From: Lampris incognitus | Taxonomy: Eukaryota > Chordata > Actinopteri > Lampriformes > Lampridae | DNA length: 64,000 nucleotides | NCBI RefSeq assembly: GCF_029633865.1 | Contig: NC_079219.1 | Coordinates: forward strand, 56,044,682-56,108,681 | Reading direction: 5' to 3' | Shown: positions 135-61,749 of the stretch, in pieces | Layout: the number at the start of each line of letters is the position of its first letter | Position numbering within the stretch: position 1 is the stretch's first letter | Made by a program: the position numbers and the translations under genes | Notes under the pieces: model-generated | Database searches by the model: none | Told to the model about the DNA's origin: nothing | The model's input: the letters and a program-made list of their open reading frames with translations, nothing else

Positions 135-1413
135 CCCAATCGTAAAGCTTGGGTCTGCTGAGGCTGGCATGCTCCACCATGCAGGTGATTTTCTCTCCAT
201 GTGAGGGCGTATACTCCAGATGAGAGTGAATCTGGTAAAACCAGTTTCCATTGGGCAGTTCCTGGGTAGTGGTGACACCGGATGTCACCTCCTTTCCATT
301 CTTCAGCCATGTCACAATGATTTGTTTGGGATAGAAATTGTATGCACTGCAGACCAACATAGCAGGATATTGGCTGCTGAATGGCTCGGCTGACCTCAGC
401 TTGACGTCGGGCTCAGCTGGGGGGAAAAGACCCAAAATCACAAACCTTCTCCGTATGTCATAAAAGCTCTAATTTGACAGAAAAAAATGCTGATTAACAT
501 CATGCGTTTGAATTAAGATGCCAATACAGCGTTTCGTGTCCTTGTAACGCAAAACCAGTGATGGAATGTAACTAAGTACATTTACTCTCAAGTACTGTAC
601 TTAAGTACAAATTTGAGGTACTTGTACTTTACTTGAGTGTTTCCATTTTTTTGCAACTTTATGCTTCTACTCCACTATATTTTTCTGACAGTTTTAGTTA
701 CCAGTTGCTTTTCATATTACAATTTTTCATACTCTTCCTGTCTAGTGAAAACCGTGTCTCCAAATTTGGTGATTCTGAATTTGATTTATTCTGATGCACT
801 GAAGGATTAAGTGGGGGGTTTTTATGGGTTGAAAACATTCTTCTACTTTTCAAGCTAAATAAACTATTTAAAAACCCTCTTGGATTAGCTGAAAAATGCA
901 TAGTCACAAAGCTCACTGCCTCATCGTCGCATTCCTCACCAAAATGATTTAGCCACTGGTAAATTATTATTACAACTGCTGTTGTGAAAATATCATCCAT
1001 AATGCTGATGTGATGTTCGCGAACGATCCGGTTCTTTTGAACGGCTCTTTGGTACGAACGGAGGGAACCGAATCTTGCTTGGTGGGAGCCGTTCTTTTTC
1101 TCGTTGTTCCTATTTCCCTTTGTCTCGTTGTACATATTTCCCTTTTCTCGTTGTACCTATTTCCCTGTCTGCCCCTAAATCCATTCCCCTTTACGCGAAC
1201 ACATGTGGATCTTGCACAAAATTCATTATACTTGTTTGTTTTTTCTGACGTTAGATAAGTTAACGGCTCAAACAACGCAAACACACATCATTTTATTGGT
1301 TGCTATGTAGGCTACAATGCATTTGATTTGTGTTGCAATGTACCCTTTGATTGGATTAAAACATGAATCTTCTCCCTGGTTTATGTCTGCCTGCTTTATT
1401 TTACCCAGAGCCC

Positions 1414-1452
<39 letters not shown>

Positions 1453-3069
1453 GCGTCAGTGAGGGGTCAGAACGCGAGAGGGTCACGTGGTTCATGTAGC
1501 CGCCGAATAGTTCCAAACGAAGCTTGGCGGGTCATTTAAATGAACTGCTTAGCCGCGATTTCCGGTAACTACTGTAACCGGTTAGTTTCTTGCCCGGTGC
1601 AGGATTCGATACGAGGTGTACTGCACCACAAGGCGACATCACTAACCGCTCGGCTAAAGGGTCAGACCCGTTAGCTAGGGGCTAAAGGGTCAGACCCGTT
1701 AGCTAGGGGCCTAACGTGTCTTATTAGTAGTTTACAGTCGTCACCCTCTCCCGGAAGCGCGCCCTCGCGCTTTGTTATTCCCGCGCTACGAAGAGACTTC
1801 TGAAGATCTGCACACTTCCGGATCCCACCGCTGCCACCAATGTAACCGAGGGTTTGTAGATGTCGCCTATACTGTGTGAAACTATAAAATAACAAATACG
1901 GAGGTTCCACTTTCGCACGAGGACCACTTTATCTGGATTCTTCCCCCAACAGAACTCCACAGCAACAACACTGCGTACAGCACATGCGCCCTCTCTTCAG
2001 CCTTCAAAATAAGAGCTCAAGGCATACGCTGTGGCAACAGCTTATACCAGGAACTTAAAATCACTAACAGGCAAGTCCAGAAAAATAGGTTACACTACTA
2101 ACCAATATTTTCAGATTTTTACATTTATGTATAGATATAGATATATTCCAACGTGACACATATTCTATGCGCACTGTTTGGAACTATCCGGGGCTCCCAT
2201 GATCCGCCATTGCTGTTAAACAATTGGCCCATTGACGTCTACGGAGTTGACGTAACCCTTTCTTTCTAGGGCTCTGATTTTACCCAGTTTCTTAGAATGA
2301 TTGAAACGTCTTTTTACCGTAAGTATTGCAATATAGGGGCATTAGCGGGGATACAGGGATGCCTGACTTTAAAAGATTTGGAAAGGCCACCCCCCCTCAT
2401 TCCGGCGCCCCTGATTACGTGTATAAAAAGCTACTTTAAAAAAAAATTTAAAGGTTGTTTCGATATTTGGTATAATCACCGAAAAAAATCACCTATGTTG
2501 TCCAGTATGTTATGGTAGAGGGCTGGGATGTAGTCAATGCAATTCCTGTGGATGTTCCGCTTCTCTTGTGCCATCAGCGTTGGGCTTTTGTTGAAGGTCT
2601 CTGCCAGTTGTTTCGCTTTCTCCGTGTTGCCAGTGAAATTCCCCAGCGTGCTGTTGTATTGTCCTTGAAAAATCCTGTTGAAGTAGAGCTGCTCAAGGTA
2701 CACGACGTCACGGGCATCTCTGGAATTAAACTGACAGCGTATAACACCGTAGGCAAAGAGACCATCTGTAAGAAAGAGTGAACAAGTGGAACAGGTGGCT
2801 GGTTGTGGTGTGTTGCGCAACAGAGAAACGTGCCACCCGAAGTCTAAGCACCTTGTAGCAAGTGCATATTTGTGTTGTTAGTCAGTTCATTGGAATAGAC
2901 AACAACAGCCACTCAAATGTACTCTTTGATGTCTTGATGTCTGGTCAATAATCCAGGTAAGGAAATCTAAGAAGGTTGAATCAGTTCATCTTTCTACTTT
3001 TTACTCACCCTCTCCAGATAGTGACGGCAACAGCAACAGCAAGACGGACGAGAGCCTCAGAGCCGACAT
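135..3069 (-). CDS. MHC class II beta chain gene (3' end beyond window or lost)
   Basis: Beta subunit of an MHC class II heterodimer, which presents peptides on antigen-presenting cells. Exons on the minus strand: signal peptide 3009-3069 (MSALRLSSV followed by a leucine run, 20 codons), beta-1 domain 2493-2765, Ig-like beta-2 domain 135-416. All introns are phase 1 with GT/AG borders, as usual for class II genes. The beta-1 domain has its cysteine pair (IRCQF and HRNC) and N-glycosylation sequons (NST, NFT). The beta-2 domain has its Ig cysteines (LVCSAYNFYP, ITCMVEH) and ends DWG. The positions after the second beta-1 cysteine read I-D-Y, where classical chains have R-H-N, so peptide binding may be non-classical. 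Intron 2 is about 2 kb and full of repeats. The connecting-peptide and membrane exon is not seen in the last 134 bases. The alpha gene lies 1.7 kb upstream on the same strand. Fish lineage (DA, DB or DE) was not resolved. Confidence 0.9.
549..740. repeat. Dispersed teleost repeat rich in AAGTAC words
   Basis: The block has the wording of a very common fish repeat (AACTAAGTACATTTACTC, then AAGTACTGTACTTAAGTAC). It is probably a non-autonomous DNA transposon of hAT type, from memory of similar sequences. It lies in intron 2 of the MHC II beta gene. Right-hand limit uncertain. Confidence 0.55.
1005..1560. repeat. Dispersed repeat block with (AG)n core in MHC II beta intron 2
   Basis: Begins with GAACGATCCGGTTCTTTTG and GAACGGCTCTTTGG words known from fish interspersed repeats. 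It holds an (AG)n run at 1415-1450 and ends in a segment with GGGTCATTTAAATGAACTGC. Family unresolved; no coding potential. Confidence 0.4.
1588..1706 (-). repeat. tRNA-derived SINE head and 27-bp tandem duplication
   Basis: Read on the minus strand, the block has a tRNA-like head (AGCCGAGCGGTTAGTGATG) and a B-box-like stretch (TATCGAATCCTGC). A 27-bp segment with GGGTCAGACCCGTTAGC is duplicated in tandem at about 1653-1706. A similar head occurs on the plus strand near 9120. Confidence 0.45.
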
Positions 3070-3102
3070 ACCAACAGCAGCACGATCAGTGAACCACTGC
3101 GG

Positions 3103-3286
3103 TCAAGCTACGCTACCCGCCGTTCCAGTCAAATCAGCCGTCACGCATATTTCAGTGCGCACATATTCTCTTTATTACGGCACAGAAACTATTTTCAAGC
3201 TACGCTACCCGTCGTTCCAATCAAATCAGCCGTCACTCATATTTCAGTGCGCACATATTCTCTTTATTACGGCACAGAAACTATTT
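3103..3286. repeat. 92-bp tandem duplication just upstream of the MHC II beta start
   Basis: Two near-identical 92-bp units, 3103-3194 and 3195-3286, differ at only a few positions and begin 34 bases upstream of the beta start codon. On the gene strand each unit carries TGACGGCTGATTTGA followed by C- or TTGG; the distal unit has an intact ATTGG (inverted CCAAT). X2- and Y-box-like words are therefore present, but their spacing is shorter than in the standard class II S-X-Y module. Confidence 0.85.
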
Positions 3287-4449
3287 CCCAACCTTGCGGC
3301 TTTTTTTCTTCGCACTTATATTCACAAAAACACTTTGGCCAAGATTGAGGACATTTGGCTACAAAATAGTAGAATCTATGGTCTCTATTAAAGTAGCTGA
3401 TTTTGGAAAGTATAGACGCAGCGTTACCATGCACGTAAGCTGTAAAGCTCTCAGTAAAACTCACCAAACTCCTGGTAGTATGTCAGCAAATTATTATTTC
3501 TTCAGTGATATTATAATGGTATTATATATTCATAAACATTAAAAGATGCATGAAATATTTGGATTCAGGCCCACTCGAAGTACAACCACAAGTAGTTGGA
3601 AGTCTGTTTTCCTTGTAGTAATCAGCTGATTAGTGAATGAATCTACACCACAAGTTAGAGACTTTCTTCTGAAGCCCTCTGAGGAAGTCAGACAGGCAAC
3701 TTGCAAAGTTGGCATGCAACAGCGTTTGCCTCTCTGTCATTTTAGACAACTTCCGTATTCAGTTTGGTCTCTTTCAGTGCTGCCAATGGCGGCATTTTTT
3801 CACATCTTATTTCGTTTGTACCACCTATTTCAGTGGTACGCTTTTTTTAAAACCCTCTGCTGGTGTCTACGGCCACGTTTAATTTCCTCTCAGCTTAACC
3901 GCACCAAATTGCTTTTACCCCACAATGTATGGTATCGTTCTCTCGGCACGACATCAGCTACAAGTCTGGGTCAATAGTTTAGATTATTTGAAAGAAAGAT
4001 AAATTGGCAAATATTTCCAGCCCTAACGTGGACTCGCAAGGGTCGATAACGCCATTATTAGATACAGCTGATCATTTACAAAACTGCTAGAAATCTCGAG
4101 ATCTTGACATTTCAGATTCTTACACCTTGTCTTTTTTGTCATTCACATCCACCCGCGAGTAAATAAACCACTAACAGTGTTAGTTTTCTGACTGACTGGG
4201 ATGCTGTTCACTTGATTTAAAAAAAACATTTTATATTCTTGGCCTGGAATTCATTATTCAGTTGAAGACCACATTATTTTCTATTAACAGTGTAATCTTT
4301 CTCAAGGTGTAATAACGTCTCCCTGCAATTGTTGGCCGTCCCTAAAGCCTGACTGCCTGGGGGTCCGGTGACCAGCATGTGGGGGAGATTCATGGAGTGA
4401 TGTTGAGTTGAGCGTGTAGAAAAATGAAAACATTCAGTCAGTTTCTGCA
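3287..4449. other. Space between MHC II beta and alpha genes
   Basis: AT-rich spacer. I see no exon, RNA gene or clear transposon here. Confidence 0.5.
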
Positions 4450-4455
4450 TTTATT
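4450..4455 (-). promoter_or_regulatory. Candidate poly(A) signal of the MHC II alpha gene
   Basis: AATAAA on the minus strand, about 330 bases past the TAA stop codon of the alpha gene. The distance suits a short 3' UTR. It is a single hexamer with no other support. Confidence 0.45.
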
Positions 4456-4784
4456 TGCTGGTACCGACTACCATTTCAGGCAAGAAAAATAATGACAGTA
4501 AACAGGAAACAAACCCACAGATTTTGGGCCATTCACAAGCACAGAATAAAACTCAATTTCAGCTCCCTGTATGAATGAAAAATGTTACAATGCAGGCGAA
4601 GAACCTCTTAACTGATCAGTTTATATTGGATTAACTAGGAAAATCTGTAAAAGGCATTATGTGTGTTCTTCCCTTGTAGGGCCTTCACATAGTTTCACAC
4701 CATTCAAGCTTGCCACTGTTAGAAAGCACTGTTTCTCATCCAGCTGCAGTCTGAGATGCTAAAAGGGTCCCCGGCAGGAAGGAG

Positions 4785-6061
4785 TTACGGTTCATTGCAC
4801 GCCTTGACGATGAGAACTGTCCCAACTGCGACACCCAGCACCCCCAGAGTGGCGCCAGCTCCACAGAATATATCAGGTCCAAAGATGGGAGGCCTGGGCT
4901 TCAGCTCTGTGGAGGATAAGGAGAAGAAAACGTCTGAGTCATCACTGACCGAAACTACACAAACGACAACAAAGGTGAAACTGGGACTCGTAACAGCTTC
5001 AGGAAAGTAGGCTGATCACCCCAGGTTGCCGTTATAGGTTGCTCCAGGGCTGTGTGCTCCACGGTGCAGCTGTAGACATCTCCCTTACTCGGGGTAAAAG
5101 TCAGGGTGGAGAACTGGTGGAAGGTCCCATCATCATTGAGATAGTAGCGACTCAGAGACGCCCCTTCTGCCACCGGGTAGCCATTCTTGACCCAGTGAAC
5201 TTGGATGGAAGGGGGGTAGAAACTATTCACAAAGCAGATGAGGCTGTTCTCTCTCCCGAGCTCTATTTCATCCAGCGAGTAGATGGTGCTCTCGGGGGCA
5301 TCTTGATGGTTGTGGTGTCCGTGTTCGTGGGTCGGGGTAGGATGTGAAGCGATGGTGCCGAGAGACAGACAATGAAAGTTAGGAGACCTTTCGGTTGTCA
5401 CTGAGGAAAACCCATAAGTGGGATAACTGCAAAGACTTTCTCTTACCTTTTTGCCCAGGTGGATTTTTCTCTTCTGCTATCATATATATGAGTAGTTCTT
5501 CACAATACTTCTTATTTCTCAAAGCATTGTGAAATTCTCTTGTTGGATCAAAAGCAATTGAAGATTGGTCAAATAGTGGGGGCAGGGTGCCAACAAGCTT
5601 TCTTGTCTGGAAATCCACATAGAAAATCTGCTCATCGTCAAGCGTCGCATGTATTTCACTTCCATTCGAATAACAGCTGATGAGATACTGAAGTTCATGG
5701 AAAGCTAAAAAAACAAACAAACCCAAAAACAACAGAAATAGAGAAAAATTACGAAGTAATTCTTTTTAGAATTATTTATTAAAGCCCCAATTATCACCAA
5801 AAGGGTCTCACAACAAGACAAACTTCTGTTCATTTCAGCTTTATTACAAATTTACTAGATTGGATTTACGGGGTGGGGTGGGGTGGTTCGATAGTTGAGT
5901 TACTATTAATCTAACCTCAAGAAACTCAGGACAGAATATGTTGCTGGAGTTATGTATGTTTAAGCCAAAACAGGCAAGCGTTACTTTAAAGGCCTATTCT
6001 TACTTTGTGCAGGGACACAGAAGAAGCTGAGAATGAGGGCGGCGATGGAAAAGCACTTCAT
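4785..6061 (-). CDS. MHC class II alpha chain, complete gene
   Basis: Alpha subunit of an MHC class II molecule, probable partner of the beta chain downstream. Four minus-strand exons: signal peptide 6004-6061 (MKCFSIAALILSFFCVPAQ), alpha-1 domain 5447-5704, Ig-like alpha-2 domain 5020-5301, and connecting peptide, membrane span and short tail 4785-4906. They total 720 nt (239 residues), all joined in phase 1. The alpha-1 domain carries two cysteines (LISCYS and KYCEELL), the extra disulfide typical of fish alpha-1 domains, and an NGS sequon. The alpha-2 domain has the Ig pair (ICFVNSFYP, YSCTVEH) and ends TWG. The membrane segment is glycine-rich with GxxxG-like spacing (GAGATLGVLGVAVGTVLIV), which in class II alpha chains packs against beta. 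The tail is only KACNEP. The alpha-2 acceptor has a weak pyrimidine tract, so its exact first base is the least certain border. Confidence 0.94.
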
Positions 6062-6893
6062 GACCTCTCAGGGCTGGAAGATGGTTGCTCGTGAAGACGA
6101 CGAGGAGAAGTTCCCGTGTGAGCAGTCAGGAAACAAACCGGCGACCATGTCACGCACTTGTACCTAAAACATCAGAGACAATGATGAATATGGAATGAGG
6201 TACCAAAACCCTCACATGGGCACTGCCCACAAACGTCACATATTTGATATCATTGACTCTGTCAGGCTGGGCTCTTGTGTATGTGGTATGACTGGTTTGG
6301 CTGGAGATAATTCTCTGCACTGCAATCTGCTTCCACATGTACTACATGCACATAGAGGACATTATTGTCACTGGCGAGAAATATAATATCAGGAAATAGG
6401 TGAACAACACAAATCAAGTTATACAGTGCGGTGGTGTTCATTGCAGAATTGACATTTGAGCCTGCTGGAGGTGTTTGTTGGGGGGGGTTTTTTGTGAGAA
6501 ACGTCCTTGGTTGTATCACAAGGAGAGTTATCAGATCATGTATGCTGGTGAAAGTAATGGCAATACCATCAAGGAGTATATTTCTCAAGCACGAGGCTGA
6601 GACATCCACCCGCATACTCAAATCAAACGCCGCATGATGGTAAACACAGCTGTTTTATGGGTGGGGGAAATCCCCCGATCATATCTCAGATTCAAGATTC
6701 TGTATTTCTTACGTCTTATTATACAAGTACAGGAGAGTACAATTCTCGTGTTTCGGCACCCCAACACTGCAGCAACAATCGTAATAAAATACCAACAAAA
6801 CAAAACAAAAAAAAAGCAGTAATAATAATAAATAGTGTGCGGTGTATGTAAGGTGCTGTGTGGGTGTAGGCCCAGCCTTAATAAATGTGCATA
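6062..6893. other. Upstream flank of the MHC II alpha gene
   Basis: Presumably holds the alpha promoter on the minus strand. I could not find a convincing X/Y-box module within about 150 bases of the start codon. The rest is unremarkable sequence running up to the Tc1-like element. Confidence 0.4.
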
Positions 6894-6895
6894 TA

Positions 6896-8114
6896 CACTC
6901 ACCGGCCACTTTATTAGGCACACCTGTCCAACTGCTCGTTAACGCAAAATTCTAATCAGCCAATCACATGGCAGCAACTCAATGCATTTAGGCATGTAGA
7001 CGTGGTCAAGACGACCTGCTGCAGTTCAAACCGAGCATCAGAATGGGGAAGAAAGGTGATTTAAGTGACTTTGAACGTGGCATGGTTGTTGGTGCCAGAC
7101 GGGCTGGTCTGAGTATTTCAGAAACTGCTGATCTACTGGGATTTTCACGCACAACCATCTCTAGGGTTTACAGAGAATGGTCCGAAAAAGAGAAAATATC
7201 CAGTGAGCGGCAGTTCTGTGGGCGAAGATGCCTTGTTGATGCCAGAGGTCAGAGGAGGTTGGCCAGACTGGTTCGAGCTGACAGAAAGGCAACTGTAACT
7301 CAAATAACCACTCATTACAACCGAGGTATGCAGAAGAGCATCTCTGAACGCACAACACGTCGAACCTTGAGGCAGATGGGCTACAGCAGCAGAAGACCAC
7401 ACCGGGTGCCACTCCTGTCAGCTAAGAACAGGAAACTGAGGCTACAGTTCGCACAGGCTCACCAAAATTGGACAATAGAAGATTGGAAAACGTTGCCTGG
7501 TCTGATGAGTCTCGATTTCTGCTGCGACATTCGGATGGTAGGGTCAGAATTTGGCGTCAACAACATGAAAGCATGGATCCATCCTGCCTTGTATCAATGG
7601 TTCAGGCTGGTGGTGGTGGTGTAATGGTGTGGGGGATATTTTCTTGGCACACTTTGGGCCCCTTAGTACCAATTGAGCATCGTGTCAACGCCACAGCCTA
7701 CCTGAGTATTGTTGCTGACCATGTCCATCCCTTTATGACCACAGTGTTCCCATCTTCTGATGGCTACTTCCAGCAGGATAACGCGCCATGTCATAAAGCT
7801 CGAATCATCTCAGACTGGTTTCTTGAACATGACAATGAGTTCGCTGTACTCAAATGGCCTCCACAGTCACCAGATCTCAATCCAATAGAGCACCTTTGGG
7901 ATGTGGTGGACCGGGAGATTCGCATCATGGATGTGCAGCCGACAAATCTGCAGCAACTGCGTGATGCTATCATGTCAATATGGACCAAACTCTCTGAGGA
8001 ATGTTTCCAGTACCTTGTTGAATCTATGCCATGAAGGATTAAGGCAGTTCTGAAGGCAAAAGGGGGTCCAACCCGGTACTAGCAAGGTGTACCTAATAAA
8101 GTGGCCAGTGAGTG
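6896..8114 (+). mobile_element. Tc1/mariner-type DNA transposon, near full length
   Basis: About 1.2 kb, bounded by inverted repeats of about 30 bp with two mismatches (CACTCACCGGCCACTTTATT at the left, its complement at the right end). A TA dinucleotide at 6894-6895 and another at 8115-8116 fit Tc1-type insertion. It holds one transposase gene. The good state of ends and gene suggests a fairly young insertion. Confidence 0.93.
7043..8082 (+). pseudogene. Tc1-like transposase, lightly broken
   Basis: Cut-and-paste transposase. It opens MGKKGDLSDFERGMVVGARR with paired helix-turn-helix segments in the first half (ISETADLLGFSRTTISRVYR). The DDE catalytic residues are all visible: D in WSDESRF, D in QQDNAPCH, E in NPIEHLW, with DD34E-like spacing. 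The frame shifts once near 7485, in an A-run after EDWK, consistent with loss of one A. A TGA at 8032-8034 cuts off the last ~16 codons (usually RIKAVLKAKGG...). With two visible lesions it is unlikely to be active itself. Confidence 0.92.
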
Positions 8115-8469
8115 TATGTATGTAGTTGTTTGCAAATTTGTGTGCGTTTGTGTATGCCAAGCTACGTGTGCGTGTGTAAAACTGGCGATCCGCTGGAGAC
8201 CATAGGTCAGTACCAGTCAGTCCGGCACCAGGCTCAGTGTCTTTAATGTTCTTTATTCAAAAGCCTGGTCGCTTGGTGGAAAAAAGCTGTTCTGGAGCCT
8301 TATAGCCACGTTTTTATGATACAATGGCGCCCCCCAGGGGTTCGTTAGGGGGGCGCGACCACCATGCCAAAACTACTAGCCACTGCCCCAGTCCCCTCCC
8401 CCACTGCAGTGTTTCGCTGCCGCTGATTTTTTTTTTTTGTTTTTGTTTTTTTAAATTGGGAGTTAAAGG

Positions 8470-10817: not shown

Positions 10818-36989
<26,172 letters not shown>

Positions 36990-39855: not shown

Positions 39856-48998
<9,143 letters not shown>

Positions 48999-54098: not shown

Positions 54099-54926
54099 TT
54101 ACTTCTTAGTCTTCCGTTTCTTTCCAATTCTTTTCTTTGAGGGATTCGGGATAATTTTTTTCACTTTGAGCGGCTGCAGAGTGCAGGGAGCAGTTTGCAT
54201 TACCTCCTCAGGTTCACCTTCTAGTTTTCTTTTCCTGCCACTCCTCTTACCAGCATCCTCCTCCTCCTCCTCCATCTGTGCTGGCTTGTTCGTTGTCACA
54301 CTGGACTCCGTTTGGTGTAGCCAGGCGGCTTCAAGTAAAGGCACTTTGGGGATAATTGCCTCAACTGTGTCAGTAAAAATCCTGTTTTCCTTTGCGTTTC
54401 GAAACCCCAGGGCCAGAACACTTTTGAGTCCCAGCGGTCCTGACACACACTCGCTCAGCCGAGGCACCTGGCAGGCAGGCACGTTTCTCGTCTGGCTCAG
54501 TGCAATCAGGTGTTGGGTCATGTGTTGTGGTTTGACAGACTTGCACACGAGCACCAGTTTGAGTTCATTCTTCTCCAGTGCCCTCGTGACCTCATTGATG
54601 CCGATGGCTAGTTGTCCTCTGGCGGTGACGTCTGTCCAGCCATTCTTGGGCGCATCCTGCATTTCTGGATCACGAACACCTTTGCTTTCCAGAGGAGTGA
54701 CTTCCGTTGTTGCAGTGGGTCTTGTTTTCTTCCGACGGCGAAACACTTTGACCTCTTTCTTCTCAAGCCCGATGGAAACCAGTTTGTCCTCAAGAGTTTT
54801 CAGAATGTAGTGCATGTCACCTTGGACTAGAGTCTTCCATTGTAGCTTATAGGGCGAGTTGAGGGAAGTCTTTGCTTGTATTTGCCTTTTCAGTTCCTTC
54901 TTTGACAACTTGCCTGGAATGGCCAT
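54099..54926 (-). CDS. rpp38: rpp38, RNase P/MRP protein subunit p38
   Basis: Nucleolar protein subunit shared by RNase P (tRNA 5' maturation) and RNase MRP (rRNA processing). One coding exon, 275 residues (human 283). The L7Ae/Nhp2-type RNA-binding domain spans roughly residues 90-185, with GWTDVTARGQLAIGINEVTR, LVLVCKSVKPQHMTQHLI and RNVPACQVPRLSECV close to human RPP38. The C-terminal third is acidic then basic (QMEEEEEDAGKRSGRKRK; end KKRIGKKRKTKK), with TLQPLKVKKIIPNP conserved. An AG acceptor (TTTATTTCAG) sits five bases before the ATG, so the 5' UTR is spliced from an upstream exon ending at 56872. It is convergent with nmt2 and divergent from acbd7, matching the neighbour order of human 10p13. 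Confidence 0.95.
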   Translation of the reverse strand: MAIPGKLSKKELKRQIQAKTSLNSPYKLQWKTLVQGDMHYILKTLEDKLVSIGLEKKEVKVFRRRKKTRPTATTEVTPLESKGVRDPEMQDAPKNGWTDVTARGQLAIGINEVTRALEKNELKLVLVCKSVKPQHMTQHLIALSQTRNVPACQVPRLSECVSGPLGLKSVLALGFRNAKENRIFTDTVEAIIPKVPLLEAAWLHQTESSVTTNKPAQMEEEEEDAGKRSGRKRKLEGEPEEVMQTAPCTLQPLKVKKIIPNPSKKRIGKKRKTKK

Positions 54927-55269
54927 ATTTTCTGAAATAAAGAAAACATGTTAAGTAAGAAGTACAATAGAGTTTGTGTGTGTGTGTGGGGGGGGGCAGG
55001 CTCAGATGTTAATCAAAAAGGCTTAAAAACCTATTACTACAGTACAAAAATATCAGCCATAAGTAATTCTGTGTTCCAGACAACTTGGAAAGCGAGATTT
55101 ACTGACCTCCTACTATCAAAAGTATGATGGAACGCCATTCAAAATCGCAGTTCCTACTTGTAAACTCGGGGCAAATCCATCTACCCTGACTTCATGGAGA
55201 AACAGTTGTCTGATGTCACACAACAATGGCAGCCCCCATGGAGGCGCACAGTGTTAATGGTAAACCATC

Positions 55270-59707: not shown

Positions 59708-61749
59708 ATGTCGCATAAGGTGATTTTTATTGCACTATCACGAAGCGCCGGAAGTGCCTTATTGCTGAGGCTTAGAATTAGAGAGTAGCTGTGGTTGAGA
59801 TGTGCTACTTCATGCCCTCTATTGGTGTCATCCATTTTTGTACTCCGGAGGGAGTTTGCAGATTAAACGACAGTAAAGCTGCCCATCCTTTATTTACCAC
59901 TGTTCGGTGCCCAGGTAGCCCACTGTCCCGTTTAATGGCAGCAAGTGTCTAGGGGCCAAACTGACAAATTGCTTCAAAATGTCAGAAAAGAACATTTCAT
60001 GTCAGACTAATAAAGAGTAAGGAAAATTATGCCTTGAAGTCCTTTTAACTAGAAAGGGCAGATTTAATTTCCATGCAGAAAGGTGAAATCTAAGTTTAGA
60101 GGGACAAAGCTGGTCATTTTTGGGATGCTCGGCTCAATCTGGACCTGCGTCCAGGTTATTCACCACAGAATGACTCGAACAGCACAGTTCTCTCCTCACT
60201 GCCAACAAATACGGTGGTTTGAATGGTTTTCACATTGAATTAACTGGGAAGTGCTCACGGTGTTGGCCACAATTATGTGACTGACAATCTCCCAGACTCA
60301 TTCCTTTGCAAAGGAACACAACCCAGATAGCAAAATTGCTGTGACCCGGATCTGTTTCACACCCGACTCTCATCTTTCTTTCATACGGCCCACATACCGC
60401 GTGGAATGATGGCACTGGGGCGGTCCGCTCCTGTTTGCCAGATCTGGGCCAGAACCAAGCCATATTAATGCCACATGTGCCACATATTTGCCAAAGGTGG
60501 CCCATATGTGTTTTGTGATATTTGGGCCATATTCAGCATTTACCACACGGGCCACTTCAGGGTCACATCCAGATCACGTGTTGCCGAGAGCACCACATCT
60601 TTGCCAGAAAAGGCCCACATTTAATTTGGCATATTTGGGCCATATTTGCTATTATACATGTGGGCCACTTCAGGCTCACATCCATTTTGTCAGGGCCAGA
60701 AGAAGGTCATTAGTGCCGCATCATTGCCTGAGGTGGCCCACATCCGGATGCTATCTGGGAAAGGCATTCACAGCCCTGCCTTGAATAAACGCCCATTGTT
60801 TATCTTTCATCCATGCTGTAATGGGTTTCTGGCTGTGGAATACTTTGTGCATTCAAAGTATTGTTTCTAAGTAATATTCACTAGCTGACATTCTGATGCA
60901 CTGCACGGCTTTTACATCAAATGCGGTAGACTGAAAATCAGACAAGACGAGGGTCAAAATGAAACAGCTGCTTTTCCACACACAAATATAAAGCAGTAAC
61001 TGGTTTCTCAACAAACATACTGACAGCCAAAGCAAATATGCATTCCAGGAAGGCATATTACAGAAAACGACATGTGAACTTTTCTTTGCATTTGTCATTC
61101 TCATCTCTCCATTGGGTGTCTCTTCATCACTCGCTTTTGTCTTTGCAGGCAGAATTTGAGAAGATGGCTGAGGACGTCAAGAAGGTGAAGACAAGACCTA
61201 CAGACCAGGAGCTGCTGGATCTGTATGGGCTTTATAAGCAGGCAATCGTCGGAGACATTAACATTGGTATATTTTTGAATAACCCGTTCACATCAACCCC
61301 CCCCCCCCTCAGATTCTGTTTATTTTATGTCTCTCTCACTTTTTTTTATTTTAACCAGATAAACCTGGAATGATGGACATGAAAGGAAAAGCCAAGTGGG
61401 AGGCATGGAACACAAGAAAAGGTAAAAACATAGCTCGATATGGGAAAATGAATGACCCGGTTTGGGTGCTTGGTTCTTTGCATCACGTCTGTCAGCGTTG
61501 GAGGCAAGATTGTTTGATAGTAACTCTGTCTACCGTACCGTTTACCATTCCCTCAGGTTTTCATATCTGCACAACCAATGTGCAAACACTGTCATCATAT
61601 CAAACCACTGCAAGTCTTCCTTGCTCAGCATTTTCTCCAAGTATACATTCATCTCATGCATGTGTCTGCATACAGGAAAGTCCACGGAGGACGCCATGGC
61701 GGCCTACATCACAGTTGCAAAGCAAATCATCACCAAATATGGGATGTGA
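59708..61749 (+). CDS. acbd7: acbd7, acyl-CoA-binding protein
   Basis: Small cytosolic protein that binds long-chain acyl-CoA esters. Coding exons 59708-59719 (MSHK), 61149-61266, 61359-61421, 61676-61749; 267 nt, 88 residues, the same length as human ACBD7. Splice phases (0, 1, 1) and GT/AG borders fit. The four-helix ACBP fold is recognisable: [20 protein letters not shown], then [22 protein letters not shown] and [15 protein letters not shown]. The ligand-binding tyrosine and lysines of the family (YGLYKQA, KGKAKW) are kept. Only twelve bases lie in exon 1, so its start rests on the splice match and the family's usual first intron. The paralogue dbi is the alternative; synteny with rpp38 and nmt2 favours acbd7. 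Confidence 0.93.
60322..60759. mobile_element. DNA-transposon-like repeat, copy 2
   Basis: About 438 bp with terminal inverted repeat CCCAGATAGCA / TGCTATCTGGG. Body is the complement of 55270-55681. In acbd7 intron 1. No clear target duplication. Confidence 0.8.

What the first reader, a model, noticed from the sequence alone, without database searches (positions are those of the whole stretch)
135..6061. MHC class II alpha/beta pair linked to the fam171a1-nmt2-rpp38-acbd7 block
A tandem alpha-beta pair on one strand sits next to a gene block that in human is at 10p13, far from the MHC on chromosome 6. In fish, class II loci are known to be unlinked from class I, but this neighbourhood may mark a specific class II lineage or a private translocation.
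Basis: partly seen in the sequence, partly recalled or inferred. Interest (0 to 1): 0.7.

Follow-up and report, generated by a model that had tools for sequence, protein, structure and literature searches.

The report
Nonclassical fish MHC class II pair
This looks like an ordinary pair of fish immune genes (MHC class II alpha and beta) of the nonclassical kind, sitting beside neighbour genes already described next to such pairs in other fish, so the linkage is a known one rather than a private rearrangement.

Summary
Four alpha exons (6061-4785) and the first three beta exons (3069-135) lie head to tail on the minus strand, with in-frame joins and GT/AG splice sites; the rest of beta is off the left edge. 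FAM171A1, NMT2, RPP38 and ACBD7 follow. The linkage is in print. Grimholt & Lukacs 2020 (PMC7862078) list FAM171A1, NMT2 and RPP38 among typical genes of the neoteleost "S1" class II region of Dijkstra et al. 2013 (PMC4219347), in medaka, stickleback, tilapia and also pike, where the pair is flanked by SPSB2 and FAM171A1. S1 holds DB-group, nonclassical genes. The chains here fit: alphaN69 is Leu, betaH81 Asp, betaN82 Tyr, betaS144 Thr; alphaN62 and betaE162 are kept; the DAA motif and 11 of 11 DE-type residues checked are absent. So "a specific class II lineage" is supported and "private translocation" is not. Limits: the species is unknown (fish is inferred), and neither fish reference sequences nor the own genome could be reached, so no lineage tree was built. 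Low novelty.

The parts
6004..6061 (-). alpha exon 1: start codon and (by position) signal peptide
   Evidence: ATG at 6061, GT donor, in-frame join
5447..5704 (-). alpha exon 2: alpha1 domain
   Evidence: AG/GT boundaries; Pfam MHC_II_alpha
5020..5301 (-). alpha exon 3: alpha2 Ig C1 domain
   Evidence: AG/GT boundaries; Pfam C1-set
4785..4906 (-). alpha exon 4: connecting peptide, transmembrane segment, short tail, stop
   Evidence: AG acceptor and stop codon; aligns with the HLA-DQ alpha membrane region
3009..3069 (-). beta exon 1: start codon and (by position) signal peptide
   Evidence: ATG at 3069, GT donor
2493..2765 (-). beta exon 2: beta1 domain
   Evidence: AG/GT boundaries; Pfam MHC_II_beta
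135..416 (-). beta exon 3: beta2 Ig C1 domain; the gene goes on beyond the left edge of the window
   Evidence: AG/GT boundaries; Pfam C1-set
3103..3286 (-). two tandem 92-base copies (97% alike) just upstream of the beta start codon
10854..36986 (+). FAM171A1, divergent neighbour: pieces at 10854-10913, 17425-17505, 17587-17637 and a large last open frame 35322-36986 (gene start and middle exons not modelled)
   Evidence: PF20771, E 1.4e-158; 3 of 5 recalled motifs found
45524..46940 (+). NMT2: two open frames that hold recognised exons (whole gene not modelled)
   Evidence: 3 of 4 recalled motifs found; best match NMT2
54102..54950 (-). RPP38, one open frame that aligns to human p38 nearly end to end
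   Evidence: RNase P p38, E 3.3e-57
61137..61426 (+). ACBD7, two recognised exon pieces (ends approximate)
   Evidence: 3 of 4 recalled motifs found; best match ACBD7

Best explanation
A DB-group (nonclassical) MHC class II alpha/beta gene pair in the already described S1 neighbourhood next to FAM171A1-NMT2-RPP38. Shown: gene structure, neighbours, residue states. Inferred: the host is a ray-finned fish; the two chains pair as a membrane heterodimer that does not grip peptide backbones in the classical way (alphaN69, betaH81 and betaN82 are replaced, and so is betaW61, a classical contact by recall), and so serves a low-polymorphism, restricted role rather than broad peptide presentation to CD4 T cells. 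A DM-type peptide exchanger is unlikely, since alpha125 is Gly and teleost classical alpha chains are reported to lack alphaW43.
For: Published S1 gene list and species; S1 genes are DB group. Residue states from alignments to HLA-DR. Most DB chains have a hydrophobic residue at alpha69, and the three intact beta partners of the five neoteleost alphaW43-bearing DB chains lack betaH81 (two lack betaN82 as well) and at least one CD4-contact residue; the pair here shares the alpha69 state, the beta81/82 losses and a CD4-contact change (betaS144 to Thr). FAM171A1, NMT2 and RPP38 are confirmed beside the pair.
Against: alphaN62 and betaE162 are kept. No tree with fish sequences was built. alphaW43, reported in six DB chains of S1/S2 or close kin, is Gly here. 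The best solved match of the beta chain is HLA-DM beta (E 2.9e-27, residues 70-205, mostly beta2), only slightly ahead of mouse A-beta (1.3e-26), so a DM-like beta is not excluded by that search. No RFX half-site with an ATTGG (Y box core) within 60 bases was found upstream of either gene with recalled patterns, so expression is unproven. ACBD7 is not in the S1 list that I saw, and the other S1 genes were not looked for.
Confidence: 0.92

Rival explanations
1. A private translocation of a class II pair next to the 10p13-type gene block in this species or its close kin.
For: A Tc1-type element (inverted repeats 6893-6925 and 8085-8117) lies between alpha and FAM171A1; class II loci in teleosts are reported to move often.
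Against: The same neighbours with class II genes are reported in medaka, stickleback, tilapia and pike, so one shared origin is simpler. A Tc1-type element between genes is common in fish (recalled).
Confidence: 0.03
2. An assembly misjoin between a class II contig and the FAM171A1 contig in the 6-10 kb stretch.
For: The stretch holds a repeat element.
Against: No N in the window, and the join reproduces a gene neighbourhood published for other species.
Confidence: 0.01
3. A DA-lineage pair that happens to sit in S1 and has lost some peptide-contact residues.
For: alphaN62 and betaE162 are kept; a few DA molecules are reported to lack peptide-binding residues.
Against: At the place of the DAA motif GCSDXDG the alpha chain reads SCYSNGS (placed by eye on the cysteine); 3 of the 4 peptide-contact positions are changed; S1 genes are DB group, while DA genes are in S3.
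Confidence: 0.04

Closest known systems
Neoteleost S1-region DB-group class II genes (medaka, stickleback, tilapia; Dijkstra et al. 2013)
   Same: class II A and B genes near FAM171A1, NMT2 and RPP38; nonclassical residue pattern
   Different: sequence identity could not be measured, since no fish class II sequence was available; alphaW43, found in some DB members, is Gly here
Northern pike Eslu-DBA/Eslu-DBB on chromosome 20 (Grimholt & Lukacs 2020)
   Same: DB-group genes with FAM171A1 as a flanking gene and NMT2, RPP38 nearby
   Different: pike has three DBA and two DBB genes there; this window shows one of each, and the far side (SPSB2 in pike) is outside it
HLA-DR1 (classical; used for numbering)
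   Same: domain layout; alpha 31% and beta 30% identical in the pairwise alignments
   Different: alphaW43, alphaN69, betaW61, betaH81, betaN82 and betaS144 are replaced; about six extra residues in alpha1

Membership tests
MHC class II alpha and beta genes | leader exon, membrane-distal domain exon, Ig C1 exon, membrane exon, phase-1 joins | tested here: met
   four exons for alpha, first three for beta, all joins phase 1; domains by Pfam
Teleost DB group | peptide-contact residues alphaN62, alphaN69, betaH81, betaN82 only partly kept | tested here: met
   N, L, D, Y: 1 of 4 kept; criterion. The phmmer alignment puts a gap at beta81 and Asp at beta82; lost either way
Teleost DB group | hydrophobic residue at alpha69 (reported for most DB sequences) | tested here: met
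   Leu; criterion
Teleost DB group | clustering with DB sequences in a tree | not tested
   no fish reference sequences in reach; one scan each of viral contigs (alpha) and genome contigs (beta) found no relative
Teleost DB group | low polymorphism, low to medium expression | not testable with these tools
   one haplotype, no RNA data
S1 synteny region | FAM171A1, NMT2 and RPP38 beside class II genes | tested here: met
   against the list
S1 synteny region | SGK1, L3MBTL3, MSH5, SPSB2, CROT, ABCB4 also linked | not tested
   not looked for in the window; the far side of the pair lies outside it and the own genome was unreachable
Teleost DA lineage | GCSDXDG (or similar) motif in alpha1 | tested here: not met
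   SCYSNGS at that place, by eye (sequence; motif)
Teleost DE lineage | alpha1 R8, L10, N16, W51 and shared F12, Q14, P18, R44; beta1 E16 and shared D41, R93 | tested here: not met
   0 of 11 present, read by eye (alpha 14 and 16 are gaps; read without the gap they do not match either); list
DM-type peptide exchanger | alphaN125 | tested here: not met
   Gly; criterion
[quoted passage not shown]
   insertion not examined; the tail exon is outside the window

The most novel reading that the evidence does not exclude
The pair could be an S1 sub-lineage with a groove of its own kind (about six extra residues in alpha1 relative to HLA-DR, alphaW43 to Gly, betaW61 to Phe, betaH81-N82 to Asp-Tyr) that binds something other than ordinary peptides, or nothing.
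Probability: 0.15. Interest if true: 0.4.

Novelty: already known. Interest (0 to 1): 0.12.

Why it matters
It adds one more genome to a described case in which a nonclassical class II locus lies beside the same genes in several fish, in contrast to the reported instability of other teleost class II loci. Useful for annotation and for naming this pair as probable DB group; it does not open a new question.

Tried and rejected
Private translocation and misjoin: rejected because the linkage is in print for other fish. Lineage tree: not built, since no fish class II sequences were in reach; a scan of viral contigs with alpha (1 pattern match, 0 relatives) and of genome contigs with beta (37 pattern matches, 0 relatives) gave nothing, as expected for these collections. 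Class II promoter motifs, with recalled patterns: in 1500 bases upstream, alpha has 2 RFX half-sites and 1 ATTGG (at -903, inside the Tc1-type element), beta has 1 half-site and 2 ATTGG (at -718 and -152); 0 of the 3 half-sites has an ATTGG within 60 bases (a looser scan of 400 bases is). Further class II exons: tblastn with the four domains gave, below E 0.01, only the known exons and the alpha2/beta2 cross-matches; the next hits were at E 0.04 and above. tRNA genes: 0. Motif misses: 2 of 8 recalled NMT/ACBP motifs and 2 of 5 FAM171A1 motifs were not found.

Full report
Observation. On the minus strand the alpha gene has four exons (6061-6004, 5704-5447, 5301-5020, 4906-4785) that join in frame into a 239-residue protein. 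The beta gene follows head to tail with exons 3069-3009, 2765-2493 and 416-135; the remaining exons must be left of the window. Pfam names the domains. Solved-structure searches return class II chains: for alpha HLA-DQ first (E 6.8e-35); for beta HLA-DM beta first (E 2.9e-27, over residues 70-205) and mouse A-beta next (1.3e-26), with two MR1 fusion chains further down the list of 60.

Neighbours. FAM171A1 is divergent from the alpha gene. A first-exon piece is at 10854-10913 and further pieces are at 17.4-17.6 kb (3 of 5 recalled motifs found); the large last frame at 35322-36986 scores E 1.4e-158 to the FAM171A1/A2/B C-terminal family. Choosing A1 among A1/A2/B rests on the recalled human motifs and on gene order. 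NMT2 follows on the plus strand (NMT2 at E 5e-32, NMT1 close behind at 1.4e-30), then RPP38 on the minus strand (RNase P p38, E 3.3e-57) and ACBD7 on the plus strand (E 5.4e-14; its second exon piece scores just under Pfam's cut-off).

What it is. A search for papers with MHC class II, NMT2, FAM171A1, RPP38, ACBD7 and teleost gave 6 papers with at least 3 of 6 terms. One of the 6 held both MHC class II and FAM171A1: Grimholt & Lukacs 2020, PMC7862078 (outline, passages, section 13 part 1 of 2 and section 17 seen). [quoted passage not shown] S1 was defined by Dijkstra et al. 2013, PMC4219347 (outline and section 4 parts 1-4 of 5 seen), as a neoteleost region with DB-group genes; of S1 genes those parts name MSH5 only, so the gene list comes from the 2020 paper. 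A 2016 review, PMC4810163 (passages seen), calls S1-S3 the only syntenic class II regions found in some neoteleosts. ACBD7 is not in the list that I saw. Four further paper searches were seen as listings; of the 7 papers, the only one of these four searches that had FAM171A1 as a term, one (PMC7862078) held it.

Lineage. HLA-DR numbering comes from MAFFT alignments to HLA-DRA and DRB1, whose recalled letters matched solved chains end to end. Alpha43 is Gly, alpha62 Asn, alpha69 Leu, alpha125 Gly; beta61 is Phe, beta81 Asp, beta82 Tyr, beta144 Thr, beta162 Glu. Of the four peptide-contact positions used by Dijkstra et al., 1 of 4 is kept; of the two CD4 positions, 1 of 2. At the place of the DAA motif the chain reads SCYSNGS, and 0 of 11 DE-type residues are present (both by eye; alpha 13-16 is a gap, and reading without the gap changes nothing). 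This is the DB pattern. The phmmer alignment places a gap at beta81 and Asp at beta82; H81 and N82 are lost either way.

Function. Likely a membrane heterodimer, nonclassical, with low polymorphism and restricted expression, as reported for salmon DB-group genes. This is inference: nothing here measures expression, pairing or ligand. The beta chain's best solved match being HLA-DM beta is told as a result against a clean exclusion of a DM-like role; alpha125 Gly and the published absence of alphaW43 in teleost classical chains speak against one.

Limits. The species is not known; that it is a ray-finned fish is inferred from the class II residues and the synteny. The window's own genome could not be searched, no fish sequences were in reach, and the left flank is missing. 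The conclusion rests on published synteny plus residue states, not on a tree.

Verdict. Real, correctly located, and already explained: another instance of the S1 DB-group locus. Interest is low.

Noticed in passing
6893-8117: Tc1-type transposon with 33-base terminal inverted repeats (94% complementary) between the alpha gene and FAM171A1; helix-turn-helix and DDE parts match Pfam but lie in two different reading frames.
   Followed up: partly
3103-3286: Two tandem 92-base copies (97% alike) directly upstream of the beta start codon; a Y-box-like ATTGG is in only one copy.
   Followed up: partly
1652-1707: Perfect 28-base tandem duplication inside the intron between the beta1 and beta2 exons.
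   Followed up: no
5447-5704 (alpha1 domain): Six-residue insertion relative to HLA-DRA after position 54 in the MAFFT alignment (net six to seven extra residues against mouse A-b and HLA-DQ in this stretch), and two cysteines that could form a disulphide, as I recall for other teleost alpha chains.
   Followed up: no
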